Shown one piece after another: positions 4,949 through 44,743 of a DNA stretch of 64,000 nucleotides. This stretch comes from a virus. Numbering within the stretch: the first letter of the stretch is position 1; each line of letters starts with the position of its first letter. Location: IMG/VR virus record IMGVR_UViG_3300037961_002553, positions 1-64,000 of that record, one strand, 5' to 3'. The notes under the pieces are model-generated. The model worked only from the letters and a program-made list of their open reading frames with translations, did no database searches and was not told where the DNA came from. The position numbers and the translations under genes are program-made.

Positions 4949-4961
4949 CAAAGCCATATGG
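4949..4961. repeat. Cassette-boundary palindrome, copy 1 (right arm missing)
   Basis: CAAAG directly abuts CCATATGG (4954-4961). No CTTTG follows within 30 bases, so this is a half element at the left edge of the array. Confidence 0.65.
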
Positions 4962-5148
4962 TTGTAGATTATGAATGCGGGAACGGTTGTTAATAACTAC
5001 CATTTTCATCTATTGTCTTATTTTCATCTTCCTCTACGGTTTGCTATAGAACGCTATTGGTAACTACAAAATGTTTGTTTACAGCCATCTATGATGAATA
5101 ACCATCTAAGTGCAGCAACCCTAAATGATAGTTATTAAAAACATTACA

Positions 5149-5167
5149 ACCATATGGTGATGCTTTG
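5149..5167. repeat. Cassette-boundary palindrome, copy 2 (left arm missing)
   Basis: ACCATATGGT followed by GATG and CTTTG (5163-5167), then CTATAACCCC. No CAAAG upstream. Together with copy 1 it looks like the two halves of one element separated by about 190 bases. Confidence 0.7.
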
Positions 5168-5182
5168 CTATAACCCCCAAGT

Positions 5183-5217
5183 GGGACGGGAAGAATTACC
5201 TCTTTTCTTCCCGCCCC
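5183..5217. other. Stem-loop, 13-base arms
   Basis: GGGACGGGAAGAA (5183-5195) can pair with TTCTTCCCGCCCC (5205-5217) with one mismatch across a 9-base loop. No T-run follows on either strand, so it may be an RNA structure or processing signal rather than a simple terminator for the gene at 5321-5530. Confidence 0.5.
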
Positions 5218-5320
5218 CGTATCTCCCTCTATTCCCTGTTTGTTTGGGTCATAGTGCCATGACGAGAGGCTCATGGCTAACGGGCCGTTTTGGGGTGCTA
5301 CGGACTTCATGCCGCATTGT

Positions 5321-5530
5321 TTAGTCGTATAGGCCAGCCAAAGCCCATTGATATTCTTCTTCCCATTGTCGCTTGTATTCATCAAGGAAATAGGCAAAGA
5401 AGCGACGAGAGGAGAAATTAGGGTTATCTCGCTGGAACATATCGGAAACGGCTTCAACGGTGGCTTGGCTCACATCAAAGACTTCTGCGAGGGTTTCAGC
5501 CATTTTCTTGTAGTGTCGTCGTTGGAACAT
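5321..5530 (-). CDS. Small cassette protein, function unknown
   Basis: 69 residues from the ATG at 5530 (MFQRRHYKKMAETLAEVFD...), helical, with aromatic and charged residues. A longer reading would start inside the boundary palindrome at 5584. The shorter start is preferred because a TATA-like CCTTATATCC and a perfect 15-base palindrome lie between it and the boundary element. It fills the cassette bounded by copies 2 and 3. The family is not recognised. Confidence 0.65.
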   Translation of the reverse strand: MFQRRHYKKMAETLAEVFDVSQATVEAVSDMFQRDNPNFSSRRFFAYFLDEYKRQWEEEYQWALAGLYD

Positions 5531-5536
5531 GATTAA

Positions 5537-5551
5537 CCGCTTGATAAGCGG
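5537..5551. promoter_or_regulatory. Perfect palindrome CCGCTTGATAAGCGG, possible operator
   Basis: 15-base perfect palindrome 7 bases upstream of the ATG at 5530 and immediately downstream of a TATA-like TTATAT on the minus strand. This is where a repressor would block an archaeal promoter. Alternatively a hairpin in the mRNA leader. Confidence 0.4.
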
Positions 5552-5568
5552 ATATAAGGTTTTATTAC

Positions 5569-5599
5569 CAAAGTATGCAACCATATGGTAATTGCTTTG
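5569..5599. repeat. Cassette-boundary palindrome, copy 3
   Basis: CAAAG (5569-5573), ACCATATGGT (5580-5589) and CTTTG (5595-5599). With one more base each side the arms are CCAAAG/CTTTGG. It is 51 bases upstream of the minus-strand start at 5530. Confidence 0.8.
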
Positions 5600-5644
5600 G
5601 TTTTACCTCAAGCAGTTTAGACCCATGCTTAGGGGTGTTTAGAC

Positions 5645-5911
5645 TTAGATTACCTTAGAAGCGGCCCAGACCTCAAGTTTTTGGATTTCTTCAGTTTGTA
5701 GGCCACGGTTAGAAGTCGGGTTAGGGAAACCGTGAATCTCCCGATAGTCGCGCAAACCAAAACGACGGTTCAAGTTATTCTTCGCGTATAGTCGCATTTT
5801 CTGGAATCTGTTGAAGTGTTGGTTAGAGTAGCCCAACCCATTGATTTCGTTCAAACAGAACTCTTCTCCGCTTATCTTGCATACCCCAGTAACTGTCTTT
5901 TCTTTTGACAT
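5645..5911 (-). CDS. Cassette protein, function unknown
   Basis: 88 residues: MSKEKTVTGVCKISGEEFCL then a basic middle (QKMRLYAKNNLNRRFGLRDYREIHG) and a helical tail. Two cysteines 8 apart near the N-terminus are too few for a classical finger. On the minus strand a TATA-like TAATATATTA (5929-5938) sits only about 20 bases before the ATG, so the transcript may be nearly leaderless. The boundary palindrome copy 4 lies 50 bases upstream. Sole gene in its cassette. Confidence 0.65.
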   Translation of the reverse strand: MSKEKTVTGVCKISGEEFCLNEINGLGYSNQHFNRFQKMRLYAKNNLNRRFGLRDYREIHGFPNPTSNRGLQTEEIQKLEVWAASKVI

Positions 5912-5948
5912 GATACTTCTTAAATTAGTAATATATTAGGGTTTTATT

Positions 5949-5978
5949 CAAAGTATCAAACCATATGGTTAGGCTTTG
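5949..5978. repeat. Cassette-boundary palindrome, copy 4
   Basis: CAAAG (5949-5953), CCATATGG (5961-5968), CTTTG (5974-5978). The left flank on the minus strand reads CTTTGAATAAAACCC and the right flank CTTTGCATTAACCCC, so the similarity extends beyond the arms. Confidence 0.8.
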
Positions 5979-6026
5979 CATTAACCCCATATAGGGGCTT
6001 CACAGGGGAAAAAGCCGTGAAGAGTA

Positions 6027-6542
6027 TCATTCCTCCTCGGAAACCTCCATATCTGCTTTCACAGGGGTTGGAACGATTTGTGGCACACCGTCTTTGACGG
6101 CGAGGCCATCCCATCGGTTTTCCTTGATTGCCTTAACCATGTAGGTATGAGCCTTACCACGGAAAGAATCAACCAATTCGCTGAAGGAGCCATAAACCCC
6201 GCCAGTTCGTCCGTGTGGCACGATAACCGACAGAATCAAGTCGTGATACTCAGTAGGGATTGTGGCAATAGCACCTGCCACGGTTTCCTCCACAGTCGCC
6301 AAAACAAGTTCCTGTTCGTCCGAAAGCGTGGATTCTCGCCCTCGTCGTGCCGCAGGAAAACCCTCCATAGTGGAGCCAATTGAACGAATAGCCGTCCAAT
6401 AGGTGCTTCGTAGTTCATCAGTTCCCGCATTATCGCCCAAAGTGAGCGAAAGGAGAACAGCGTTCAAATTGTCGCTTGGTTCCTGTGTTTCGGCCCAAGC
6501 CCGCACTTTGTTTGTGTTCAATGTCCAATTCTTCATCTTCAT
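6027..6542 (-). CDS. Paralogous cassette protein A (family with 7170-7676 and 10259-10732)
   Basis: 171 residues from the ATG at 6542 (AGAGGTGA upstream). Shares long blocks with the protein at 7170-7676: DELRSTYWTAIRSIGS, FPAARRGRES and PHGRTGG, and the C-terminal RWDG. A more distant relative is at 10259-10732 (RRGQKS; SWDGS). The family is not recognised. The arginine-glycine block and tryptophans suggest nucleic-acid or protein contact, which is speculation. Its cassette (copy 4 to copy 5) is almost exactly as long as that of the paralogue. Confidence 0.75.
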   Translation of the reverse strand: MKMKNWTLNTNKVRAWAETQEPSDNLNAVLLSLTLGDNAGTDELRSTYWTAIRSIGSTMEGFPAARRGRESTLSDEQELVLATVEETVAGAIATIPTEYHDLILSVIVPHGRTGGVYGSFSELVDSFRGKAHTYMVKAIKENRWDGLAVKDGVPQIVPTPVKADMEVSEEE

Positions 6543-6636
6543 TTTTTTCACCTCTTTCCTAAAAAAGATACTCCGCGTCGTTTTTCCCCTGTGGAGCAAT
6601 AACCCACGCAGGTTGGCGTATAAGGTTGTTTCTACG

Positions 6637-6669
6637 CAAAGCGATAAACAACCATATGGTGTTGCTTTG
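6637..6669. repeat. Cassette-boundary palindrome, copy 5
   Basis: CAAAG (6637-6641), ACCATATGGT (6651-6660), CTTTG (6665-6669). On the right CTTTG runs directly into TTTATACCC, a TATA-like box 32 bases before the ATG at 6708. It lies between divergent genes. Confidence 0.8.
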
Positions 6670-6707
6670 TTTATACCCTAAACAATACACCAACAAAAGA
6701 ATAGGGC

Positions 6708-6956
6708 ATGAACAACCACCAAGCAACCGCGATTATGAATCTTATTGCAGAAACCTTTCCAAGCCTTATCCCGTGGCTTGAAGGACAATACATGAAAGCC
6801 GTTTTTAAGGATATGACGCTCTATGCCGATGAACCACACGCTATGATTGGATTAGCGGAATTTGCCGCCAGCATTGAGGCTTTTGCTGATGCTATCGCTG
6901 AAGCCTCACTTGAAGAGATGTTTCACCTTATGGCTGATATGATGGGAGGTGCTTGA
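6708..6956 (+). CDS. Small acidic helical cassette protein
   Basis: 82 residues, predicted entirely alpha-helical, with an alanine-rich second half (AEFAASIEAFADAIAEASLEEM) and methionine-rich ends. No recognised domain. A TATA-like TTTATAC is at 6670-6676. First of two plus-strand genes in the cassette between copies 5 and 6; the next gene starts 3 bases after its stop. Confidence 0.65.
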   Translation: MNNHQATAIMNLIAETFPSLIPWLEGQYMKAVFKDMTLYADEPHAMIGLAEFAASIEAFADAIAEASLEEMFHLMADMMGGA

Positions 6957-6958
6957 GT

Positions 6959-7123
6959 ATGAGAATTTCACATTGTCCGACCTGCGGCACAGAATTGGCT
7001 AAGGATGATTTCATGTCCTTCGCTTTCATCTTAGGAGGCAACATTTGCCGCCATTGTCTTGAGGACGACCCTTCGGGGTCAAAAGAACAAAGCATGACCA
7101 TATGGTTGTGCTTTGCCAGTTGA
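6959..7123 (+). CDS. Zinc-ribbon microprotein
   Basis: 54 residues with CPTC and CRHC pairs 21 residues apart, a typical zinc ribbon. It follows the 82-residue gene immediately and is probably co-translated. Unusually, its last codons (SMTIWLCFAS) run through the boundary palindrome copy 6, so the repeat is partly coding here. Confidence 0.65.
   Translation: MRISHCPTCGTELAKDDFMSFAFILGGNICRHCLEDDPSGSKEQSMTIWLCFAS
7088..7115. repeat. Cassette-boundary palindrome, copy 6 (fully symmetric)
   Basis: CAAAG (7088-7092), five bases, CCATATGG (7098-7105), five bases, CTTTG (7111-7115). It lies at the 3' ends of convergent genes, so it cannot be just a promoter element. Confidence 0.85.
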
Positions 7124-7169
7124 AAACGAAACCCCGCCGCTAAGCGGGGCTGCGAGGGGAAAACCCGCA

Positions 7170-7676
7170 TCATTCCTCTTCTTGACCTCCTTCAGCCGAT
7201 TTCACGGCAGGTGGGGTCAATGCTGGGATTTCACCGTTCATGGTTCCATCCCAACGACCTTCTTTGTAGCCCTTAACGAGAGCGTCATAGGCCTTTTTGC
7301 CCATTGACTGAGCAAATGCCATAACATCGTCAAATGCGCCACCAGTTCGCCCATGAGGGAGAATAACGGTGGTAATGAGGTCAGGGTTAGTAATGCCCGC
7401 AAAGGCAGTAATAACCGCATTCTTCACAGAAGTAGCATTTAGGTCTACTTCTTCGGGCAAAGACGATTCTCGGCCTCGGCGGGCGGCTGGGAAATCATCA
7501 TAAGGACTCCCAATTGAGCGAATAGCCGTCCAGTAAGTAGACCGCAATTCATCGCTATCCGTTGCATTTCCAAGTGTAATAGACAAAGAAATGGCTTGAC
7601 CCACTTCTCCCCTATCTTCACGCTCAAGCCACGCTTGAACGGCATTTGTGTTCTTAATCCAGTTATCTTGCTTCAT
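7170..7676 (-). CDS. Paralogous cassette protein B
   Basis: 168 residues from the ATG at 7676 (GGAGGAATTGATT upstream). Strongly similar to the protein at 6027-6542: NTNAVQAW, DELRSTYWTAIRSIGS, FPAARRGRESSL, PHGRTGG, GRWDG, with an acidic tail (GGQEEE). The leader before both genes also shares GCTCC...GGGGAAAA. Its cassette (copies 6 to 7) is 692 bases against 691 for the paralogue, pointing to duplication of a whole cassette. Function unknown. Confidence 0.75.
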   Translation of the reverse strand: MKQDNWIKNTNAVQAWLEREDRGEVGQAISLSITLGNATDSDELRSTYWTAIRSIGSPYDDFPAARRGRESSLPEEVDLNATSVKNAVITAFAGITNPDLITTVILPHGRTGGAFDDVMAFAQSMGKKAYDALVKGYKEGRWDGTMNGEIPALTPPAVKSAEGGQEEE

Positions 7677-7774
7677 AATCAATTCCTCCAAAAAGGTTTG
7701 ATGCGTCCGTTTTCCCCTCGGAGCAACCAACGGCGACCATAGGCGACTATGGTTGCTTTTTCATTAAACACTCG

Positions 7775-7807
7775 CAAAGCGAAAAGCAACCATATGGTAG
7801 GACTTTG
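7775..7807. repeat. Cassette-boundary palindrome, copy 7
   Basis: CAAAG (7775-7779), CCATATGG (7790-7797), CTTTG (7803-7807). Between divergent genes; 49 bases before the plus-strand start at 7846. Confidence 0.8.
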
Positions 7808-7845
7808 GAAGTAGCCAAGCATAACCACCAATCAAGAGGATAACC

Positions 7846-8139
7846 ATGCAAAGCGTGTTCGTCGTCCAAACCAATGAAATGCCTCTCTCCCGAAATCCCG
7901 ATTGGAAAACTCAACTCCAATTCGGAATCTTCCGCCGTCGTGAAGATGCCGAGAAAACCATGTTCAATGTCATGGCTCGCAAAATGCGAGACGGAATTGA
8001 TGAGATTCGTGAAATGACCTCCACCAAGCGAGGCAAGGGCAAAGCCGCCTACAATGCCAAAGTCTACGAAATCACCGAGGAAATCCCACGCTCAATTCGT
8101 GTTCACGAAATCCGTGTTTTGCCTGTCAGGGGTTTCTGA
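7846..8139 (+). CDS. Cassette protein, function unknown
   Basis: 97 residues, mixed alpha/beta: N-terminal strand (SVFVVQTNEMP), helix with RRREDAEKTMFNVMARKMRDG, then KVYEITEE and a final strand IRVHEIRVLPV. The length and pattern suggest a small compact domain. Not recognised. The ATG lies 49 bases from the palindrome, the same spacing as for the gene at 6708, and GAGGAT precedes it. Confidence 0.65.
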   Translation: MQSVFVVQTNEMPLSRNPDWKTQLQFGIFRRREDAEKTMFNVMARKMRDGIDEIREMTSTKRGKGKAAYNAKVYEITEEIPRSIRVHEIRVLPVRGF

Positions 8140-8174
8140 CCTTGACGGGGGCTTCGGCCCCCTCTTGGCTAAAA

Positions 8175-8205
8175 CAAAGTATTACCATATGGTATTGTTT
8201 CTTTG
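8175..8205. repeat. Cassette-boundary palindrome, copy 8
   Basis: CAAAG (8175-8179), ACCATATGGT (8184-8193), CTTTG (8201-8205), then TTATAAATACCC, a TATA-like continuation towards the gene at 8287. Confidence 0.8.
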
Positions 8206-8286
8206 TTATAAATACCCTCCAAAATTCAAATCTTGAGGTTTAGGATTTAAATCAATAAGTTAGGAGCATACCCACTTAGGAAGAAC

Positions 8287-8421
8287 ATGAAAGAAGCATA
8301 CGAAGAAGTCAAGTGGTGGTATGAATTCGCTATGGGCCTAATGGAAGTCTGTCAAAAGAATTACCTCCATGCGGAGGTGCAAGAGGTGTTAAGTCGCCTT
8401 TGCGGGAGTGAGGAAGAATGA
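8287..8421 (+). CDS. 44-residue helical protein
   Basis: Short plus-strand frame MKEAYEEVKWWYEFAMGL... ending CGSEEE. Preceded by a TATA-like TTATAAATA at 8205-8213. Amphipathic with two cysteines. Sole candidate gene in the cassette between copies 8 and 9. Short, so moderately supported. Confidence 0.5.
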   Translation: MKEAYEEVKWWYEFAMGLMEVCQKNYLHAEVQEVLSRLCGSEEE

Positions 8422-8478
8422 AAAGATGACCGATAACCCCTTCAAATACCCATTATATGGGAGCGTTGGGGTGAATAA

Positions 8479-8512
8479 CAAAGCATTACCATATGGTTGT
8501 TGTTATGCTTTG
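8479..8512. repeat. Cassette-boundary palindrome, copy 9
   Basis: CAAAG (8479-8483), ACCATATGGT (8488-8497), CTTTG (8508-8512). Confidence 0.8.
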
Positions 8513-8610
8513 CACTAATCAAATAACCATAAGTGAAACGCCGCCTACTCCATGCATATGAGACTCACTCCGATACTTTGTTTCTTCATCAAGAATTGGC
8601 GCGCCAATAA

Positions 8611-8784
8611 ATGATTACTTGTTGCTTTCTCGCCTTACTGCTCTGTGTTTCGGCTTTGTTTCACTATGGTTTTATGGCCACTAATAGCCATAGGAATGTG
8701 AAAGGGTGGGATGAAGAATTGGGTATCTCCAAGACTGGAGCGATTGGGTCGCTCTCACTAATTGGTGCTCCTTTGGTTTCTTAA
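8611..8784 (+). CDS. Possible small membrane protein
   Basis: 57 residues with a hydrophobic N-terminus (CCFLALLLCVSALF) and a milder hydrophobic C-terminus (IGSLSLIGAPLV). This could be one membrane anchor or a signal peptide. No clear Shine-Dalgarno. It is the only plausible gene in the cassette between copies 9 and 10, hence listed with low confidence. Confidence 0.35.
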   Translation: MITCCFLALLLCVSALFHYGFMATNSHRNVKGWDEELGISKTGAIGSLSLIGAPLVS

Positions 8785-9021
8785 GAGCCAGTCTGCTGAT
8801 TTTACGAACATGGTTAGTAGCCATGCGCCTTTTGAGCCTTAATCGCTTTCACAGGGAACAAATAATCTATGCTACTCAGCCGTCATATCTGCTATGTGTC
8901 CCACTACAGGAAAAATCACACCTTACCCCCACCAACAAGGGTATTCGGTCAATCCCCTCCGAGGGGAGCGACCCCCCGAAGCAATAGAACCGAGCGATTA
9001 TCGCTTATGGTTCTCCATGTG
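8785..9021. other. Non-coding part of a cassette
   Basis: No supported gene. It contains short inverted repeats such as CCGAGCGATTATCGC and a CCCCTCCGAGGGG stem near 8960, and is proline-codon-rich when read forward. It may be remnant sequence or structured RNA. Confidence 0.3.
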
Positions 9022-9054
9022 CAAAGCAATATAGAACCATATGGTTTTACTTTG
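9022..9054. repeat. Cassette-boundary palindrome, copy 10
   Basis: CAAAG (9022-9026), ACCATATGGT (9036-9045), CTTTG (9050-9054), then GTAAAACCCC. Located at the 3' side of the minus-strand gene at 9092-9454. Confidence 0.8.
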
Positions 9055-9091
9055 GTAAAACCCCTCAGCAATTGCTTCACAGGGGGGATAA

Positions 9092-9454
9092 TCACCATTC
9101 ATCCCTTGGGTTGAAATAAGTGTGCCTTCCCCTATCATCGGAGACAAAAGAGCCGCCCCAACCCATTTCATATGAGCGAGTTCGCATTTCGGCGTTGTCC
9201 TCGTCAATTCGGGCTTGAATGTCCTTGTCGGTATAATGGAACGGTTTGTGCTCTGCTGCGTATTCCTTCCAAATTGGGAGAATCTCGTCCAAGTCGTCCT
9301 TTTCCATCATTTCGGAAGAAACATCGGCCTTCTCCCAAAAGGTTTCATAGATGGTATCTTCGCAGAAGAAATACCTAACTCCTTCCATGTCCCTCACCCA
9401 TCGGTTTTCATCGTCTGTTTTCTCAGTCAGCCATTTGTAAAAAGATTTTGCCAT
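9092..9454 (-). CDS. Acidic cassette protein, function unknown
   Basis: 120 residues, rich in D/E and aromatic residues: MAKSFYKWLTEKTDDENRW, then VRYFFCEDTIYETFWEKA and a C-terminal GWGGSFVSDDRGRHTYF. GGAGGT precedes the ATG. The acidic, aromatic profile is reminiscent of DNA-mimic or inhibitor proteins of viruses, but no family is recognised. Single gene between copies 10 and 11. Confidence 0.65.
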   Translation of the reverse strand: MAKSFYKWLTEKTDDENRWVRDMEGVRYFFCEDTIYETFWEKADVSSEMMEKDDLDEILPIWKEYAAEHKPFHYTDKDIQARIDEDNAEMRTRSYEMGWGGSFVSDDRGRHTYFNPRDEW

Positions 9455-9509
9455 TTTTCAACCTCCAGCGAAAAATTGACGGTAGCGGGCGATTAAGGTA
9501 TTATTTATT

Positions 9510-9531
9510 CAAAGTAAATAATACCATATGG
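9510..9531. repeat. Cassette-boundary palindrome, copy 11 (right arm degenerate)
   Basis: CAAAG (9510-9514) and CCATATGG (9524-9531). The right side reads TTTG without the C. Last copy, closing the array. The minus-strand flank CTTTGAATAAATAATACC resembles the other copies. Confidence 0.7.
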
Positions 9532-9639
9532 TTTGAATAAATCAAAGAGCGCAGAATGTTCTTATTTAGCCATATTCAAACACGCTGAAACGGGGAGGAT
9601 TTTCAGCCCCCAAAAATCCGTCAAATTTGACAGGGTGTT

Positions 9640-10010
9640 TCTCAACTGTGGTTATATTAATTCGTATTCATATTCTAATATTCAATATTAGTATTATAGT
9701 AAAATAAATCGGTTGTCTCATGGTTGGGAGGGGATGAGACGAGACAACACACGGAAGAATCATCAAGGTTATGCAACATAAGTAAAAATATATTTCTATT
9801 ATCTCATTATCTCATCATCTCATCATCATCATCACTACTACTACACACAACCCCTTATTTTCTTAGGGGTATGGAGAGAGAAAGATTCCCCTTTTGTGAT
9901 GAGACGAGACGAGACAACTATTTTTTGCGTGTTTCCACAAGGTTCTAGGGGGTTGTGTTGCATAACCCCATCGTCTCAAGATGAGACAACAGGCGAGACA
10001 GTCTCATGCA
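9640..10010. other. Repeat-dense non-coding region, candidate replication origin
   Basis: No gene. An AT-rich segment (9654-9708) is followed by GTTGTCTCAT (9712-9721), ATGAGACGAGACAAC (9734-9748), an ATGAG/CTCAT-rich tract (9795-9835), tandem GAGAC units ending GAGACAAC (9901-9918), and a cluster of GTCTC, ATGAGACAAC and GTCTCAT (9973-10007). Longer inverted repeats are GGTTATGCAACA (9767-9778) with TGTTGCATAACC (9956-9967), and ACACAACCCC (9845-9854) with GGGGTTGTGT (9949-9958). Iteron-like boxes beside an AT-rich stretch, at the junction with the replication genes, fit an origin. A complex regulatory region is the alternative. Confidence 0.45.
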
Positions 10011-10258: not shown

Positions 10259-10732
10259 ATGGATGATACCACATGGGAAAGCCTCAAAATTGAGGTGAAC
10301 GAATACCTTGAAGCCGACACCACGCTTGATGCAGGATTGCGTCAAGTCGTTGAATTGAACCTGCAAATCGGGACGAACAACCCCGATGAGCGAACTGCCG
10401 CCGAAGGTGCGCTTAAAGCACTTTTGAAGGGCCGTGATGGAACCCCGTTCCGCCGAGGCCAAAAGAGCGCAGTTCCAGCCGCAGTTCGTGTTTCAATTGA
10501 CCGAATCTGTGGAGTTGTTGAAGAAGCCGCAATTGGCTACTACAACCACGATGCAGTTATTGGTGCAATTACCATGAAGCACATCAAATCTGGTGGCGGT
10601 GCTTACGATGGCGCAGAAGATTACGCTTCTGCCGTTGTGAAGAGAACCCGAAACAACCTTGGCAAGATGTTCAAGGACGGTTCTTGGGATGGTAGCGTTG
10701 ATTCCCTTTTAGGCGAATCAAGCGACCTTTGA
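10259..10732 (+). CDS. Third, divergent member of the cassette paralogue family
   Basis: 157 residues from the ATG at 10259 (GGAGAG upstream). It aligns loosely with the proteins at 6027 and 7170: a ...RRGQKSA block where they have RRGRES, a GG(A/V)YD block after a conserved strand, and SWDGS near the end where they have RWDG. It has its own TATA box and its own terminator, so it is probably transcribed alone and strongly. Function unknown. Confidence 0.75.
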   Translation: MDDTTWESLKIEVNEYLEADTTLDAGLRQVVELNLQIGTNNPDERTAAEGALKALLKGRDGTPFRRGQKSAVPAAVRVSIDRICGVVEEAAIGYYNHDAVIGAITMKHIKSGGGAYDGAEDYASAVVKRTRNNLGKMFKDGSWDGSVDSLLGESSDL

Positions 10733-38340: not shown

Positions 38341-40008
38341 ATGATAATTAGTAGAATGAATGATGGAAATAGAATATATAAATCTTGGAGAGAAAACGGA
38401 GAAAAGAAACATGAGATTGTTCCCTTTAGACCTTATTTCTATGTTAAGGAAGATAGTGCAGAACCATTTGAATATAGACCTTCTAAATATATTAGTCGGG
38501 AGTTTGAGTATATTCGTGGCGATTGGGTTAATCTTAACAACGAGCCGTTGAAGAAGGTAATCGTTGAGACTTCTCACGATATGCGAAAAGCAAAGGATAT
38601 GTTCGGTGAAACCTATGAAGCCGATGTTCCTTTTCACTTTCGGTATTGTGTTGATGAGTTAGATGAAATGCCCGAATATAAAATGCGTAAATGGTATTGG
38701 GATATGGAATGGCAACAAGGTGGCGATTATCACGACCAATTGACTACAATTGTTGTTTATGATAACTACGATGAGAAATACTATCAATGGTCGTGGTTCC
38801 CTGAAGATGAATGGATTCCGAACAAACAACTTCAAGCAACCGATAATTATGAAACATATTTTTCTTTTTCAGAAAGAACAATGATTGAGTCTTTTATGAA
38901 CGCTATGATTGTAAAAGACCCCGATATGTTAATTGCTTGGTTTGGTCATTTTGCTGATTTACCAAAGTTATTTGAACGAGCGTGTGCGGTGGGTCTTGAC
39001 CCTCGCATTATTTCACCAACGGCAACAGTCAAGGGAGTTAAGTCTGTAAAAGACGGCTATGAGTTCAAATATTCGGAGAAAGGTTTTTCTCCAATTGAAC
39101 AACCTATTGGTGGGCGAATTACACTTTCTTTGGACTTAGCATTTGAAAGACAATGGAATGATTCTCAAAGAGGAACATTACCCTCGCTTTCTCTTGATTA
39201 TATCGGTGAAACAGTTCTTGATAAAAAGAAGTTGGTATCGGAAAAGTTTCCAGACACCAATGAATTTTATCGCAGGGCTTGGTTAGAAGATACACAAACA
39301 TACCTCAAATATGCTTTGAGAGATGTTGAATTGATGGTTGAGATTGACGAAACTAATTTTTGTAGTGAAGCAATTCTTTCTCTTCAACGATTACTGAAAG
39401 CACCATTTGATGCTTGTTTTTATGCAAGTCATATGGGTTCTATCTACTTTATGCGAAACGCTTGGTGGAAAGCACCAACGGGTAGTAAAGTGGATAAAAG
39501 AGAAGAATATGAAGGGGCTATGATTTACGACCCATTAAGTGAAGGAACAAACGGATTACATTTAAATGTAGCCGCCTTTGATTTTGCTGGTCTATACCCT
39601 TCAATGATGATTGCTCGCAATATCAGTTGGGAAACTAAATCAGTAGAGCCGACTGAATTTGCAGTTAATATTCTTACTCCGAGAGACTTTAGCGAAACAA
39701 AACATGAGCAGATGCTCTATTACAAAACGGATAAACTCGGCTTACTACCAAGAGCCGTCCTTGAATTGAAGGAGTTGCGAAATGAATATAAACGACTGAT
39801 GCGAGAGGCAAGAGAAACGGACAATGGCGAGTATGCGAAGTGGTATAACAATCAAATGGCAGTTAAGCGTCTAATGGCTTCTTTTTATGGCATTGTTGCC
39901 TTTCAAGGATTTGGTTGGGCTGATGTTGATTTGGCGGCATCTATTACTGCAAGTGCAAGAGAAGCAATTAGATTAGCGGCGTTTGCTGCAAAGGAGATGG
40001 AAGCATGA
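38341..40008 (+). CDS. polB1: DNA polymerase family B, N-terminal part (split gene)
   Basis: 555 residues: N-terminal domain, 3'-5' exonuclease (YWDMEW, ~119-124, Exo I; AWFGHFADLPK, Exo II; YALRD, Exo III), palm motif A DFAGLYPSMM (~412-421), motif B KRLMASFYG (~509-517). It ends just after motif B, in the fingers/palm, without motif C. Motif C and the thumb are encoded 0.7 kb downstream at 40722-41615. All exonuclease residues appear present. No intein-like sequence at the break. Together the parts give 852 residues, normal for PolB. Confidence 0.92.
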   Translation: MIISRMNDGNRIYKSWRENGEKKHEIVPFRPYFYVKEDSAEPFEYRPSKYISREFEYIRGDWVNLNNEPLKKVIVETSHDMRKAKDMFGETYEADVPFHFRYCVDELDEMPEYKMRKWYWDMEWQQGGDYHDQLTTIVVYDNYDEKYYQWSWFPEDEWIPNKQLQATDNYETYFSFSERTMIESFMNAMIVKDPDMLIAWFGHFADLPKLFERACAVGLDPRIISPTATVKGVKSVKDGYEFKYSEKGFSPIEQPIGGRITLSLDLAFERQWNDSQRGTLPSLSLDYIGETVLDKKKLVSEKFPDTNEFYRRAWLEDTQTYLKYALRDVELMVEIDETNFCSEAILSLQRLLKAPFDACFYASHMGSIYFMRNAWWKAPTGSKVDKREEYEGAMIYDPLSEGTNGLHLNVAAFDFAGLYPSMMIARNISWETKSVEPTEFAVNILTPRDFSETKHEQMLYYKTDKLGLLPRAVLELKELRNEYKRLMREARETDNGEYAKWYNNQMAVKRLMASFYGIVAFQGFGWADVDLAASITASAREAIRLAAFAAKEMEA

Positions 40009-40214
40009 ACAGTTTTTGTAAAAATTGGATTAATCAAGAAATACCTAATATGCCAGATGGATTTACTGCATCACAAATGCACAGCAGGCTATCTAATTTG
40101 GGCAAAACTTTAAAATATCTTGAAAATACGACTTGTATTGGGGTTTATCTCAAAAGACACAAAGCCTTAACTATGAATGATTCATCGGGAATTAGAACCT
40201 ATTGGAGGAAATAA
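40005..40214 (+). CDS. Small winged-helix-like protein within the split polymerase
   Basis: 69 residues. DGFTASQMHSRLSNLGKTLKYLENTTCIGVYLKRHKAL resembles the helices of a wHTH, similar in layout to the protein at 34014-34241. ATGA overlap with the polymerase N-part. Likely DNA binding. Confidence 0.6.
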   Translation: MNSFCKNWINQEIPNMPDGFTASQMHSRLSNLGKTLKYLENTTCIGVYLKRHKALTMNDSSGIRTYWRK

Positions 40215-40216
40215 AT

Positions 40217-40390
40217 ATGAAAACAAAATATATTACAGTTAAACTATCATATGATAGTGAAGAAACTTATGAAATTACAATGCAAGAAGTCAAAGAGATT
40301 TTTCAAATGATGAATAACCTCAAGCGGAACGCCATCATTGTAGATATTGAACAAGGTGTGAATGAAAATGATGATGGACAGGACGAATGA
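40217..40390 (+). CDS. Small protein within the split polymerase
   Basis: 57 residues from the ATG at 40217 (GGAGGAAATAAAT upstream). A beta strand and helix (KYITVKLSYDSEETYEITMQEVKEIF), acidic tail (NENDDGQDE). Unknown. Confidence 0.55.
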   Translation: MKTKYITVKLSYDSEETYEITMQEVKEIFQMMNNLKRNAIIVDIEQGVNENDDGQDE

Positions 40391-40409
40391 ATTATTGGAG
40401 GAATTATTG

Positions 40410-40499
40410 ATGATGATTAACAGAAGCAACAAAATTCTAATGATGGTCAATGTGGTTAATATTGCGACAATCATTACATTACTGGTGGTGGTATTATGA
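40410..40499 (+). CDS. 29-residue hydrophobic peptide
   Basis: MMINRSNKILMMVNVVNIATIITLLVVVL: basic start then one membrane span. GGAGGAATTATTG precedes it; its stop overlaps the next ATG, which supports translation. Too short to classify. Confidence 0.45.
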   Translation: MMINRSNKILMMVNVVNIATIITLLVVVL

Positions 40500-40717
40500 C
40501 CGATGATAGAGTATATTTAGAAACACTAAAAGAAATTAAAAACATGAAAGAACAAATGCATAAAGAAATTTCTAGAATGAAGGCGGAAATGGATATTATG
40601 TATATTGAATTACAAAGAGCAAAACAAGAAATTGGTGCTATTCGTGAAATACAAGAAGAAGTAGCAAAATTAGCAGGTGTTCCTGTTGGAATGCTATTTA
40701 CAAATTACCGAGCGTGA
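40496..40717 (+). CDS. Coiled-coil protein within the split polymerase
   Basis: 73 residues, one long helix with heptads (LKEIKNMKEQMHKEISRMKAEMDI), ending AGVPVGMLFTNYRA. Last of the four small genes between the polymerase parts; its stop is 4 bases before the TTG of the C-part. Confidence 0.6.
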   Translation: MTDDRVYLETLKEIKNMKEQMHKEISRMKAEMDIMYIELQRAKQEIGAIREIQEEVAKLAGVPVGMLFTNYRA

Positions 40718-40721
40718 TAAC

Positions 40722-41615
40722 TTGAAAGTAGTTTATGGACATACAGATTCTATCTATGTGCAGATAGATTCGGTGGAGCAAGCACAAAAATCAATTAAAG
40801 AGATTGAGGCAAAAGTGCGAGAACATTTTCCTAATGTGATGGGATTAGATAATCATCCCGTTGTTCTTGAATTTGAAAAGTATTATTCAGCATTGGGTGT
40901 TGGAACAACCAAAAACAGAAACGCAGGATTAGTGTCTTGGGAAGATGGAGAATGGTTAGAAAAACCAAAGTTCAGTATGACTGGATTTACGGCGAAGCGT
41001 GTTAGCGAAACAAAATTAGCGAAAGAAGTGCAAACAAATGCTCTCAAAATGTGGGTAGAACAAAAGACCTATCCTGAAATTACCAAGTATTTGTATGAAA
41101 CATTTAAATCTGTGAATGAAGGGGATATTCCAATCTCTTCCATTATCAAAAGAAGCCGTCTAAGGCAAAACCGTTTCACAGTAAAATGCCCCGAATGCAA
41201 GACACAATATCATTTGCGTGATTGTATTCATCTAAAGCATAAAGTTTGTGAAAAGTGCGCTACACCAACGAAGCAATTTACCACTCTTGAAGGAAAGAAG
41301 CCGACGATTGGTTCGGGTATTGCTGGTGTTTTGTATGCTTGGGAAAAGAAAAAGGCTAATTTTGATGACTCTTATCTCTTCTTAAAAGTAAAGAGAGTAA
41401 ATGATTTCTATACGCATCCTTTAACGCAAGAAAGGCGAGAAGTGGAATACTTATCAGGCATAACCTACGAGGATTTCAAGGGTTGTAGTCCCGATTGGGG
41501 CTTCTATTCGCAACAGGTTATCAAGAAGGCGGAACCCATTTTCAAGGCTATGGGATGGGACACAACGGCCATACGCACAGGAAAAATACAGTCAAGCCTT
41601 GACGAATGGTGGTGA
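40722..41615 (+). CDS. polB2: DNA polymerase family B, C-terminal part with PIP box
   Basis: 297 residues from the TTG at 40722. It opens directly with motif C, VYGHTDSIYV (4-13), where the first Asp of DTDS is His while the second, catalytic Asp (D9) is kept. Palm/thumb sequence with TTKNRN follows, then CPEC...CEKC zinc insert (~155-182), and the last eight residues QSSLDEWW (290-297) form a PIP box for the sliding clamp. It must assemble with the N-part to work. Confidence 0.88.
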   Translation: MKVVYGHTDSIYVQIDSVEQAQKSIKEIEAKVREHFPNVMGLDNHPVVLEFEKYYSALGVGTTKNRNAGLVSWEDGEWLEKPKFSMTGFTAKRVSETKLAKEVQTNALKMWVEQKTYPEITKYLYETFKSVNEGDIPISSIIKRSRLRQNRFTVKCPECKTQYHLRDCIHLKHKVCEKCATPTKQFTTLEGKKPTIGSGIAGVLYAWEKKKANFDDSYLFLKVKRVNDFYTHPLTQERREVEYLSGITYEDFKGCSPDWGFYSQQVIKKAEPIFKAMGWDTTAIRTGKIQSSLDEWW

Positions 41616-41620
41616 AAAAC

Positions 41621-42532
41621 ATGAACACAGATGAAAAATATGAAGCAAGAATTAACTCAATGAGGCCATTTACTTACGATTGGCAACCAGAAAATTATGA
41701 CGACCCATCAAAGCCAATTTTGAAGATTAGTAAATCTTCTTTAGTAAATTCTTTTGGTTGGTGCAATAAGAAATACGAATTTGCTTATATTCAGCGACTA
41801 CCAGCAGACCAAACAGAAGCGATGAGAAAGGGAACTATTCTACATAATCACCGTGAAGAATTTTTTGATGTCTTTGATATTAAGAAAGCAGAATCTATGA
41901 ATAACTCAGAAGTGCTTGAATATTGCACATCTTTAATGCCTGTTGATGATTATTTTGATGTTTCATTAACAGTAGCGGCATTTGAAGCACAGCGATTCAT
42001 TGAAGCAAGAAGTGAAGGAAGAGTTGATGAGTATTTGCCAGTCATTAATGAGCGAATGTTTGATTGCGAAATTACTGTTCCTCAAAATGTAAGTAAGAAA
42101 TATCCCCTACAACGAGATTATGTAGTGAGACTTCAAGGTATTATTGACCGTGTGTTTATTGAGAACGGCAAACTAATTCCCTTTGAATACAAGACTGGGG
42201 GCTGGAAAGAAGGTAAAGAATCTTCTATGCGCCAAGAAATGGCCTTTTATCAATTGATGATTGAAAATGCACCCGAAGAAGTGCTTGAAAAACATGGTTT
42301 GACAAAAGACATGGAAGTGAGCCATTGGGGTTGGTATTATCCCGTCGCTAACCATATTACCGTTGAACCTGTTAAGAAGCGTTCAATGACTGCTCTTTGG
42401 GATAATATTGCTAAGTTAATCTACACTTATGAACAAGGAGAATTTCCGACTAGTTTTTGGAGAAACACTTGTTCTCAGTATTGTTCCTATTATGGTATTT
42501 GTCCTGCGGCACAAGAGGATGCTTGGTTATGA
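41621..42532 (+). CDS. Cas4/RecB-type PD-(D/E)XK nuclease with Fe-S cysteines
   Basis: 303 residues from the ATG at 41621 (GGTGAAAAAC upstream). LHNHREE gives the histidine near the N-terminus, GIIDRVF...IPFEYKTG the D and ExK catalytic residues. One early cysteine (FGWC) plus C-terminal CSQYCSYYGIC (about 283-293) make the four ligands of an iron-sulfur cluster as in Cas4 and AddB. A 5' or 3' exonuclease for end processing in recombination is likely. Confidence 0.82.
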   Translation: MNTDEKYEARINSMRPFTYDWQPENYDDPSKPILKISKSSLVNSFGWCNKKYEFAYIQRLPADQTEAMRKGTILHNHREEFFDVFDIKKAESMNNSEVLEYCTSLMPVDDYFDVSLTVAAFEAQRFIEARSEGRVDEYLPVINERMFDCEITVPQNVSKKYPLQRDYVVRLQGIIDRVFIENGKLIPFEYKTGGWKEGKESSMRQEMAFYQLMIENAPEEVLEKHGLTKDMEVSHWGWYYPVANHITVEPVKKRSMTALWDNIAKLIYTYEQGEFPTSFWRNTCSQYCSYYGICPAAQEDAWL

Positions 42533-42550
42533 TAAAAGGAGGTGAAAAAA

Positions 42551-42757
42551 ATGGTTGATTTAAAGAAAACAAGAGAAAATTTTAAGAGAGACACTAGAAG
42601 AGCGTATAGAATGAGACAGGCTACTATGGAAAAAATAGGAGTCAATTCTTATGAAGATTTTTTGATTGAGGAACTCATCAAAAAACATTATAAGCAGTTC
42701 TCGCACATTGATTACGAAAAATTATTGGAGAGTCTTTTAGATGAAAGAATTAATTGA
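42551..42757 (+). CDS. Small basic protein with very strong ribosome site
   Basis: 68 residues, basic (KKTRENFKRDTRRAYRMRQATMEK) then helical with KHYKQF. Preceded by AAAGGAGGTGA, the strongest Shine-Dalgarno in the window, so probably highly translated. Unknown function, DNA-binding plausible. Confidence 0.6.
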   Translation: MVDLKKTRENFKRDTRRAYRMRQATMEKIGVNSYEDFLIEELIKKHYKQFSHIDYEKLLESLLDERIN

Positions 42758-43112
42758 AAAGAAAGTGCTTGGTAGAAATTGGACATTCAACGAGATTTCT
42801 AATCTCAATGATACAGTAGCCAATCTATCGCAAGACATTTACTCAGAGATGACTCTTATTGAGAAATTTAAACTGGTTCAAGATTTAAGAATCAAAGAGG
42901 ATTATGTAGGGGCCTATTTTGAAGATGTGCTTAAATTAACAGTAATGACAGTCTTAAACGGCGAAATTGCTATGACAATCAAACAATTGCTCAATGGAGC
43001 AACAATTAATTTTGGAGGTAATACAAATGAAATTTCCGAGGGAAGTATGGGCGGGAAGCCACATCAAGAACGCACCACAAATGAAAAGAAAAGTCGTCTT
43101 AGCGAGGAATGA
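42741..43112 (+). CDS. Helical protein overlapping the primase start
   Basis: 123 residues, helical (LNDTVANLSQDIYSEMTLIEKFKLVQDL). Its last ~28 codons overlap the primase gene in another frame and read as a polar, low-structure tail. Could help pairing with primase, but there is no motif. Confidence 0.55.
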   Translation: MKELIEKKVLGRNWTFNEISNLNDTVANLSQDIYSEMTLIEKFKLVQDLRIKEDYVGAYFEDVLKLTVMTVLNGEIAMTIKQLLNGATINFGGNTNEISEGSMGGKPHQERTTNEKKSRLSEE

Positions 43113-44067
43113 TTATGCTAACTTTATTAATGCTCAAAATAACAGGACAAATGTCTACACTACGGTCTATGATTTTGAACATTTCTCAGAGAAAGCAAAA
43201 GTAGAATCTTCTGTAATTATTGATAGAATCTTTCTTGATTTTGATGCACACGAAGATGAATTAGATTTGGCTTGGAGGGATGTTAAAGTGGTAATGCAAT
43301 TAGTTCATGAAAGAGATTATTTGCATACGCTTTTCTTTTCGGGCCGTGGCTTTCATCTATTTTTGTTTGGTAAGAAAACAAATAATATGAGAAATGTTCA
43401 AACTCTTTTCCGAGAGATTAAAGCATATCTCTCATCAAAAGTTGGTAGCAAAAATACACTTGATGATAGGGTAGGACAAACAACAAGATTACGCCGTATT
43501 CCTAATACTGTAAATATGTCATCTTCTGACGAAAATGGCAAACCCTATTATTGCATACCCTTGACACGATTTGACCTTATGTGTGAACTTGAAGATATTC
43601 TTGAGATTGCCAAAGAGCCTCGCCTTATCCCCTTCCAAAAGGATGGAAAAAACGAGGTTGTGTTTCCCGATGCACCCCCCATTGAGGCGATAGAGGGCGA
43701 GGTTTCCGTTCCCGATACGGTAGGAAAACTTCCAATGTTGCCCTGTTTGCATAATGCGGTAATGACGGAGAATCCTTCGCATATGGCGAGAGCATACCTT
43801 GTTTCTTGGTATCGTGATTTGCTTTCGGGCTATCGTGATTTATCTTCGGGACAAGAGAAAATGAAAGTGCTGGACTTAGTGGTTGAAGAACTTGAAAGAG
43901 TATTTTCTGAATCTGATTCGGTATGGCTTGATTGGGATAAAAACGAAACTAGAAAACACGCAAGATTTACAGTATTCAATAACTACAATACGCCTCATTG
44001 TGATAAATTGATTAGTGATGGCTTTTGTGTTGGAAAATGTTGGAGGTATCATAATGCTAGTAATTGA
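43027..44067 (+). CDS. priS: Archaeo-eukaryotic primase, small-subunit type
   Basis: 346 residues from the ATG at 43027 (GGAGGTAATACAA upstream). FLDFDAHED (catalytic Asp pair, ~71-73), FFSGRGFHLFLFG (SGRGxH motif, ~103-111) and RLRRIPNT are AEP primase hallmarks. The C-terminus has HCDKLISDGFCVGKCW, a cysteine motif like that of the large-subunit or zinc-stalk region, possibly replacing PriL. Makes primers for the PolB. Confidence 0.85.
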   Translation: MKFPREVWAGSHIKNAPQMKRKVVLARNDYANFINAQNNRTNVYTTVYDFEHFSEKAKVESSVIIDRIFLDFDAHEDELDLAWRDVKVVMQLVHERDYLHTLFFSGRGFHLFLFGKKTNNMRNVQTLFREIKAYLSSKVGSKNTLDDRVGQTTRLRRIPNTVNMSSSDENGKPYYCIPLTRFDLMCELEDILEIAKEPRLIPFQKDGKNEVVFPDAPPIEAIEGEVSVPDTVGKLPMLPCLHNAVMTENPSHMARAYLVSWYRDLLSGYRDLSSGQEKMKVLDLVVEELERVFSESDSVWLDWDKNETRKHARFTVFNNYNTPHCDKLISDGFCVGKCWRYHNASN

Positions 44068-44743
44068 TTCAAGAGAGAAGTCCAAATTAGCCAAATTGGT
44101 TATGCAGAAAGCAAAGGGCTTAAATATACAATACGAACAGCGTTGGATTGAGATAGGCGACTACATCTACGACGATGTTTGTTTTGAAGCAAAATCAACA
44201 ACAGATTTTTTAGGTTCAGTAATGACAAAAAGATTATGGACGCAAATTGACAACATGGATAGACACTATAAAACAAATGTAGTGATTATTCATGGTAGTC
44301 TTGATGAAGCAATTATGAATGTGATTGAAAACTCGGAAAGCAAAATGCCCATCGGAACAAGAAGCATTATGCTTAACAATAAATTTCTTGGTGCAATTGG
44401 TAGATTGATTCTTGATACAGATGTAAAACCAGTATGGGTTGAGACAGAAGAAGAAGCCGCTTTGATTATTACAGCAGTAAGCAAAATGAAACCAATGACA
44501 AGAGATGTGATTGCCCCGCAAGTATTCAAGAGACTAACTACTGACGATTTGCGACTAGATTTGTTGTCCAGTATTAAAGGCGTATCAATTAAGAAAGCAA
44601 AAGAATTAATAAAACAATTTGGCTCTATTATGGAAATAGGTGAGTGTTCGGAATACGAATTACAAGCCATTGAAGGAATCGGAGAAACCTTAGCCAAAAG
44701 AATACTCTCCACATTAAACTCGGAAGAGAAGGTGAAAATATGA
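44054..44743 (+). CDS. ERCC4/XPF-family structure-specific nuclease with HhH
   Basis: 229 residues from the ATG at 44054. ERCC4 nuclease domain: LVIDSREK (2-9), EIGDY, FEAKSTTDF (variant of ERKxxxD with R replaced by A). The C-terminus has tandem helix-hairpin-helix (LLSSIKGVSIKKAKELIKQFG; LQAIEGIGETLAKRIL). Size is like the nuclease half of archaeal Hef or short XPF, without helicase. Would cut branched DNA. The altered ERK arginine could lower activity. Confidence 0.85.
   Translation: MLVIDSREKSKLAKLVMQKAKGLNIQYEQRWIEIGDYIYDDVCFEAKSTTDFLGSVMTKRLWTQIDNMDRHYKTNVVIIHGSLDEAIMNVIENSESKMPIGTRSIMLNNKFLGAIGRLILDTDVKPVWVETEEEAALIITAVSKMKPMTRDVIAPQVFKRLTTDDLRLDLLSSIKGVSIKKAKELIKQFGSIMEIGECSEYELQAIEGIGETLAKRILSTLNSEEKVKI

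What the first reader, a model, noticed from the sequence alone, without database searches (positions are those of the whole stretch)
4949..9531. Array of gene cassettes bounded by eleven copies of one palindromic element
The core ACCATATGGT with CAAAG and CTTTG arms 5-10 bases away appears at 4949, 5149, 5569, 5949, 6637, 7088, 7775, 8175, 8479, 9022 and 9510, and I saw no CCATATGG elsewhere in the window. Each interval holds one or two short genes, on either strand, and copies sit at promoter ends as well as at convergent 3' ends. The element is symmetric, so a recombinase or homologous exchange could insert or invert cassettes. It recalls integron attC arrays or the intergenic stem-loops thought to drive gene exchange in some phages, in a different sequence context. 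No known integrase gene is in the window.
Basis: partly seen in the sequence, partly recalled or inferred. Interest (0 to 1): 0.88.

Follow-up and report, generated by a model that had tools for sequence, protein, structure and literature searches.

The report
Shuffling gene-cassette array in archaeal viruses
A marine virus of archaea, and nearly all its relatives, carries one row of small gene cassettes joined by an identical 10-base palindrome, and cassettes have been added, lost, moved and flipped exactly at that palindrome although no known integrase is present, so it looks like an unreported virus version of a gene-swapping platform.

Summary
In detail: 11 CCATATGG cores (10 exact ACCATATGGT) lie in 4949-9532 and nowhere else in the window. 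Each half-element is a stem-loop, GGT-stem-CTTTG-stem-ACC read outward from the core. Stem sequences vary but covary, while the 10-bp core is almost invariant. The window is a magrovirus-like genome. In a search made without using the element, 43 of 51 related loci carry one such array at the same place, between the structural and replication modules. The exchange interpretation is supported at base level. Homologous cassettes stop matching exactly at the outer edge of the core. Against a relative about 90% identical in the flanks, one window cassette is absent and the next is inverted between the same neighbours; in another pair a cassette has moved to a new slot. Among shared gene families, orientation differs in 27.5% of comparisons in the array against 0-0.8% in the flanks. 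Cassettes tend to carry TATA-like motifs at gene starts and GC hairpins at gene ends. No tyrosine, serine or Y1 recombinase was found, so the enzyme is unknown; I favour annealing at the palindrome by viral recombination machinery, and a new recombinase is not excluded. It works like integron or PeSL shuffling but is a member of neither.

The parts
4949..4985 (.). Element 1 (core GCCATATGGT at 4953-4962), array end next to the structural module; CAAAG on the left, no CTTTG arm on the right
4963..5148 (.). Noncoding unit, about 190 nt, beginning GGTTGTA and ending TACAACC; homologous units at the same end in relatives (96% identical in L250)
5149..5175 (.). Element 2 (core 5149-5158; right hairpin GGTGATGCTTTGCTATAACC)
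5321..5530 (-). Cassette gene, family f12 (ORF could start as early as 5584)
5565..5612 (.). Element 3 (core 5580-5589)
5645..5911 (-). Cassette gene, family f90, 88 aa
5935..5990 (.). Element 4 (core 5960-5969)
6027..6542 (-). Cassette gene, family f0 (multi-copy all-helical family, function unknown)
6622..6680 (.). Element 5 (core 6651-6660; left stem GGTTGTTT/AAACAACC)
6708..6956 (+). Cassette gene, family f47
6956..7123 (+). Cassette gene, family f211 (zinc-finger-like, weak Pfam match); its ORF runs through the next core
7073..7133 (.). Element 6 (core 7097-7106)
7170..7676 (-). Cassette gene, second f0 paralogue; 96% identical cassette in L250
7760..7820 (.). Element 7 (core 7789-7798; left stem 10 bp GGTTGCTTTT/AAAAGCAACC)
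7789..8193 (.). Cassette unit 6, core to core; absent from relative L250 while both neighbouring cassettes are present
7846..8139 (+). Gene of cassette unit 6, family f290, 97 aa
8160..8225 (.). Element 8 (core 8184-8193)
8184..8497 (.). Cassette unit 7, core to core; present in L250 in inverted orientation
8287..8421 (+). Short ORF (44 aa) of cassette unit 7
8465..8530 (.). Element 9 (core 8488-8497)
8611..8784 (+). Short ORF of cassette unit 8
9010..9065 (.). Element 10 (core 9036-9045; right stem GGTTTTA/TAAAACC)
9092..9454 (-). Cassette gene, family f50, 120 aa
9492..9550 (.). Element 11 (core 9523-9532; left stem 11 bp GGTATTATTTA/TAAATAATACC; right half has TCAAAG instead of CTTTG), array end next to the replication module
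10259..10732 (+). f0 paralogue just outside the array, first gene on the replication side

Best explanation
An array of exchangeable cassettes in magrovirus-like (Poseidoniales-virus) genomes. SHOWN: each unit between two cores holds one or two short genes or a noncoding unit, and its ends are stem-loops (GGT-stem-CTTTG-stem-ACC outward from the core). Units have been gained, lost, moved and inverted as wholes, with breakpoints at the 10-bp core. SUGGESTED: TATA-like motifs follow the hairpin at gene-start ends and GC hairpins at gene-stop ends, so many cassettes look like self-contained transcription units that could work in any slot and either orientation. INFERRED: because the core is palindromic and nearly invariant, any cassette end can anneal with any other in either direction; the viral replication and recombination enzymes (PolB, ERCC4 and PD-(D/E)XK nucleases, ATP-dependent ligase) join broken or displaced ends there, perhaps at breaks promoted by the hairpins. 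Selection then fixes useful sets of accessory genes. My estimates: cassette exchange at the core 0.9; base-paired hairpin ends 0.85; annealing by viral machinery rather than a dedicated recombinase about 0.5.
For: Specificity and spread; search made without the element: 43/51 loci with at least 3 cores. Hairpins: own stems of 5 or more bp in 40.6% against 8.7% when swapped; Watson-Crick excess at stem positions 4-9; covariation score 0.301 against 0.123 +/- 0.012 shuffled, and lower for every slid version. Core strictly kept: of elements with both arms, 336 have an exact core, 9 have one mismatch, none has two or three. Breakpoints at the core. Clean gain or loss, inversion and transposition of single cassettes. 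Orientation control: 108/393 inverted in the array against 0/2227 and 14/1746 in the flanks. Cassette ends: TATA-like 43% against 8%, GC hairpin 9% against 40%. No integrase, resolvase or Y1 transposase found; nucleases and ligase present.
Against: Inversion is rare among recently diverged cassettes (13 of 361 homologous pairs), and some families keep one orientation (f47 8/0, f33 0/9, f50 0/7), so orientation is not free. Cassette bodies are also replaced or diverge inside conserved ends, so not all exchange is at the core. Ten base pairs is short for ordinary homologous recombination. All records are metagenome assemblies; ongoing exchange was not observed. A conserved core can attract alignment ends, although in the pairs of at least 85% identity almost none ends in the 40 bp before it.
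Confidence: 0.72

Rival explanations
1. Dedicated site-specific system: an unrecognised viral or host recombinase or endonuclease acts on the palindromic core or on the folded hairpin ends, as an integrase does on integron attC sites.
For: Homology ends exactly at the core edge; the core is nearly invariant while stems vary freely; hairpin pairing with more tolerance of G-T than A-C in the outward strand on both gene sides (modest). The f0 family is nearly universal, multi-copy, lies in and beside the array and has no known fold.
Against: No tyrosine, serine or Y1 recombinase in 25 records; no candidate shown to bind or cut the core; f0 has no recognisable catalytic motif.
Confidence: 0.3
2. 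The element is a regulatory punctuation mark (bidirectional insulator, terminator or promoter module); shuffling is a passive by-product of repeated sequence, as proposed for T4 PeSLs.
For: TATA-like and GC-hairpin motifs abut the hairpins according to gene end; element between nearly every transcription unit in all geometries; ends more conserved than gene bodies.
Against: Does not by itself explain why the 10-bp core is nearly invariant and cassettes break exactly there, nor noncoding intervals as short as 25-50 bp between cores. Compatible with, not exclusive of, the best explanation.
Confidence: 0.35
3. The repeats are replication-origin or packaging sites at the strand switch, with unrelated genes between them.
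For: The array lies where gene direction and GC skew switch and occurs once per genome.
Against: The sites define cassette boundaries and travel with cassettes; spacing follows gene length; copy number ranges from 3 to over 20.
Confidence: 0.07
4. Assembly artefact or chance.
For: All related records are metagenomic; one contig (184,733 bp) is a join of two genomes.
Against: The repeated identity is only about 10 bp, so it should not collapse in assembly; hundreds of distinct elements; same locus in genomes from many samples; control flanks show almost no inversion.
Confidence: 0.03

Closest known systems
Integron gene-cassette arrays (attC sites, IntI)
   Same: Tandem array of short, mostly unknown genes, one or two per cassette; recombination site with variable stem sequence and conserved structure; cassette gain, loss and reordering
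   Different: No tyrosine recombinase found; site is a perfect 10-bp palindrome between two stem-loops, so cassettes occur in both orientations; cassettes appear to carry their own promoter-like ends; found in archaeal viruses
PeSL (promoter-early stem-loop) elements of T4-like phages (cited in PMC4503421 and PMC3950731; original papers not held)
   Same: Repeated intergenic motif combining promoter, stem-loop and terminator features; linked to modular shuffling in a hyperplastic region without an integrase
   Different: Here the element is symmetric, sits at all gene geometries, has a nearly invariant palindromic core at which cassettes break exactly, and two hairpins with mutually complementary loop motifs (CAAAG/CTTTG)
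HGTV-1 (Halogranum tailed virus 1) TATA plus inverted-repeat motif (PMC3950731; KC292026)
   Same: Archaeal tailed virus; repeated intergenic hairpin with TATA boxes before small genes; shuffling suggested
   Different: In the region I read the motif is one TATA-hairpin-TATA promoter per gene, genes run in one direction, and the sequence is unrelated; ACCATATGGT occurs once in 90 kb
dif/pdif modules of Acinetobacter plasmids (PMC6449649, PMC13141974)
   Same: Gene modules bounded by repeated sites and extensively shuffled; the recombinase is not encoded in the module
   Different: pdif sites are XerC/XerD sites in bacteria; this core is a 10-bp palindrome with hairpins and shows no Xer-like layout

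Membership tests
Integron | IntI-type tyrosine recombinase next to the array | tested here: not met
   PF00589 absent from 25 array-bearing records; control rings in 14/14 genomes
Integron | attC sites folding on one strand with R and L boxes | tested here: not met
   Each half forms its own hairpin around a symmetric core
Integron | Cassettes exchanged at the repeated site | tested here: met
PeSL-type shuffling element | Stem-loop with adjoining promoter and terminator features, repeated between small genes | tested here: met
   (motif level; no transcription data)
PeSL-type shuffling element | T4-like early promoter sequence and T4-like phage context | tested here: not met
   Archaeal virus gene set with TFIIB, PolB, thermosome; archaeal TATA-like motif
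dif/pdif modules | 28-bp XerC/XerD sites | tested here: not met
   Only the 10-bp core and CAAAG/CTTTG are fixed; stems and spacers vary
IS200/IS605 (Y1) transposition | Y1 HUH transposase | tested here: not met
   PF01797 absent from 25 records
Order Magrovirales (Poseidoniales viruses) | PolB replisome, ERCC4 nuclease, DNA ligase; replication and structural modules in opposite directions | tested here: met
   searches compared with PMC12999244 and PMC10160649
Order Magrovirales (Poseidoniales viruses) | Phylogenetic placement of hallmark genes in a named family | not tested
   The annotated phage collection gave no match to the terminase-like marker

The most novel reading that the evidence does not exclude
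A virus-borne cassette-capture platform, the integron analogue of archaeal viruses: a previously unknown recombinase (viral or host) acts on hairpin-tipped cassette ends at an invariant palindromic core, letting viruses that infect the same Poseidoniales host trade accessory genes and small RNAs in either orientation.
Probability: 0.3. Interest if true: 0.95.

Novelty: new variant of a known kind. Interest (0 to 1): 0.83.

Why it matters
Magroviruses are abundant viruses of surface-ocean archaea, known so far only from metagenomes. One 5-kb locus per genome concentrates gene turnover, and its boundaries can be read to the base. This gives a catalogue of accessory genes (likely host-interaction or anti-defence genes, inferred), a precise test bed for how lytic viruses exchange genes without an integrase, and possibly a new recombinase. 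I found no description of the element in the papers available here.

Tried and rejected
Pairing of the left arm with the right arm of one element (one large palindrome): rejected, own pairs no better than swapped. Host origin of the element: a scan of 84,980 genomes gave one clustered hit (L221, a MAG contig labelled Altibacter, probably a misbinned virus contig) and 18 singletons, about the 15-20 I estimate by chance. RNA versus DNA hairpin decided by wobble pairs: in the outward strand G-T is less depleted than A-C (0.82 against 0.59 of expectation) on both gene sides, which does not follow gene sense; suggestive only. Function of f0: AlphaFold model all-helical (pLDDT 85.8, pTM 0.57), no PDB match, one unnamed viral match. 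Consensus structure of the 190-nt terminal unit: no supported structure from RNAalifold. Pfam and PHROGs on cassette proteins: only weak sub-threshold matches. Named relatives in the phage collection: none by the terminase-like marker.
Full report
OBSERVATION. The window holds ten exact ACCATATGGT and one further CCATATGG, all between 4949 and 9532, none elsewhere; 0.01 are expected by chance. The record is a 68,571-bp IMG/VR virus contig and has no further copy. Its gene content (PolB, RFC-like clamp loader, TFIIB-like protein, thermosome, UvrD helicase, ERCC4 nuclease, PD-(D/E)XK nuclease, ATP-dependent ligase) and its two opposed modules match published descriptions of magroviruses, viruses of Poseidoniales archaea (PMC12999244, PMC10160649). 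The array lies between the leftward structural-side genes and the rightward replication genes, where GC skew changes sign.

SPREAD. All 46 records examined carry the core; in the 15 records read in full at that stage it forms one cluster of roughly 2 to 5 kb per genome of about 95 kb, apart from scattered single 8-mers. The exception is a 184,733-bp contig that is two different genomes joined, each with its own array. To avoid circularity I searched with a terminase-small-subunit-like protein instead: of 51 loci with at least 7 kb on the array side, 43 have three or more cores, mostly 3.5 to 9.8 kb away. A scan of 84,980 prokaryote genomes found one clustered hit (a MAG contig labelled Altibacter, probably a misbinned virus contig) and 18 singletons, about chance.

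ANATOMY. Whole-element symmetry holds only at motif level: the outer left and right arms of one element are not more complementary than swapped ones. Instead each half is a stem-loop: reading outward from the core, GGT-stem-CTTTG-stem-ACC. Own stems of five or more pairs occur in 40.6% of halves against 8.7% after swapping. With a foot chosen without regard to pairing, Watson-Crick pairs exceed expectation at stem positions 4 to 9 (390 against 193 at position 4; 292 against 137 at position 5). An independent count on 120 distinct halves gives covariation 0.301 against 0.123 +/- 0.012 in shuffles, and lower values for all slid registers. The loops CAAAG and CTTTG of the two halves are complementary, so they could kiss; that is not tested. 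In contrast to the stems the core hardly varies: among elements with both arms, 336 have the exact core, 9 have one mismatch and none has two or three.

CASSETTE ENDS. Elements sit between codirectional (223), divergent (78) and convergent (45) genes. Half-elements at gene starts are followed at the hairpin foot by TATA-like sequence in 43% of cases against 8% at gene ends; half-elements at gene ends are followed by a GC-rich hairpin in 40% against 9%. This suggests many cassettes carry promoter and terminator with them (motif evidence only).

EXCHANGE. Between homologous cassettes with different neighbours, alignment ends cluster at the core, and among alignments of at least 85% identity the commonest end is exactly the outer edge of the 10-bp core, with almost none in the 40 bp before it. 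The best cases are at base level. WIN against L250 (contig IMGVR_UViG_3300030060_003910; flanks about 90% identical): the cassettes are collinear, but window unit 7789-8184 is absent from L250, and unit 8184-8488 is present inverted, with both hairpin ends almost identical and the outer neighbours conserved. L245 against L246: one cassette of about 360 bp sits in a different slot while its neighbours are 96% identical. Over 89 oriented genomes and 506 units, 32 genome pairs share at least three units: 142 shared, 13 out of order, 3 inverted, 227 private. The control is strong: for gene families shared as single copies by 608 genome pairs, orientation differs in 108 of 393 comparisons inside the array, in 0 of 2227 on the structural side and in 14 of 1746 on the replication side, and the shared fraction of genes is 0.098 against 0.245 and 0.353. 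These pairs are not independent, so the proportions are descriptive.

LIMITS. Inversion is the rarer event among recent homologues (13 of 361 pairs), and several families keep one orientation. Gene bodies also diverge or are replaced inside conserved ends (WIN and L250 unit 1), so exchange inside cassettes may occur too. The out-of-order fraction of single-copy families is not higher in the array than in the flanks (0.076 against 0.068 and 0.089), because few families are shared; the evidence for movement is the unit-level comparison. The wobble-pair asymmetry does not decide whether DNA or RNA folds. Everything rests on metagenome assemblies, although a 10-bp repeat is too short to mislead assembly by itself.

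MECHANISM. No tyrosine or serine recombinase or Y1 transposase was found in 25 array-bearing records, with positive controls. The virus does encode nucleases, ligase and polymerase. I therefore favour joining by annealing at the palindromic core during recombination-dependent replication; the palindrome explains why both orientations are possible. A new recombinase remains open. The f0 family is the most constant companion (90 of 109 regions, up to several copies), but its predicted all-helical fold matches no solved structure, so its role is unknown.

COMPARISON. The system works like integron cassette arrays, T4 PeSL shuffling and Acinetobacter dif modules. It fails the defining features of integrons (integrase, attC layout), T4 PeSLs (promoter type and context) and dif modules (Xer sites). 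HGTV-1, another archaeal tailed virus, has a TATA-hairpin promoter motif likened to PeSLs (PMC3950731); in the region I read it is one-directional and unrelated in sequence. I found no report of the present element in the papers held, but key papers on Poseidoniales viruses and on PeSLs are not held.

Noticed in passing
window 4963-5148 and first units of about 20 relatives (G017, L248, L250, L263, G013): A conserved noncoding unit of about 190-225 nt at the structural end of the array, with CTATAGAACGC and TTACGCAACT motifs and ends GGTTGTA/TACAACC; possibly a small RNA or an origin-like site. Structure not resolved.
   Followed up: partly
G022 (IMGVR_UViG_3300030333_003061), about 41250-45400: Twenty-one cores, most 115-310 bp apart with no ORF between; many intervals fold more stably than simple shuffles (z down to -4.8), as if many cassettes were noncoding RNAs.
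   Followed up: partly
G024, G041, L025, L021, L039, L112 short units of 80-130 bp: Units with a 5' hairpin, a GGAGG-like site and tiny ORFs for acidic peptides such as MFFDDDE, MFDCDD and MYDDED, with the start codon inside a second stem.
   Followed up: no
window 40008-40677: The B-family DNA polymerase is split into two ORFs (38341-40008 and 40677-41615) with about 670 bp between; a mobile intron, an intein remnant or a sequencing fault is possible.
   Followed up: no
window 9700-10010: Just outside the replication-side end of the array: many GAGACGAGACAAC-type repeats and a TCATCATCATCA run; possible operator or origin repeats.
   Followed up: no
IMGVR_UViG_3300021958_000021 (184,733 bp): The contig is a join of two different related virus genomes (matching stretches mostly 72-93% identical), each with its own array.
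   Followed up: partly
L221 (NZTP01000027.1, MAG named Altibacter): A contig of a bacterial MAG carries five two-armed elements of this array; probably a misbinned archaeal-virus contig.
   Followed up: no
window 6027-6542, 7170-7676, 10259-10732: Protein family f0, present in 90 of 109 regions and often in 2-4 copies, has conserved W, HG(K/R)(S/T)GG and WDG motifs and no recognised fold.
   Followed up: partly
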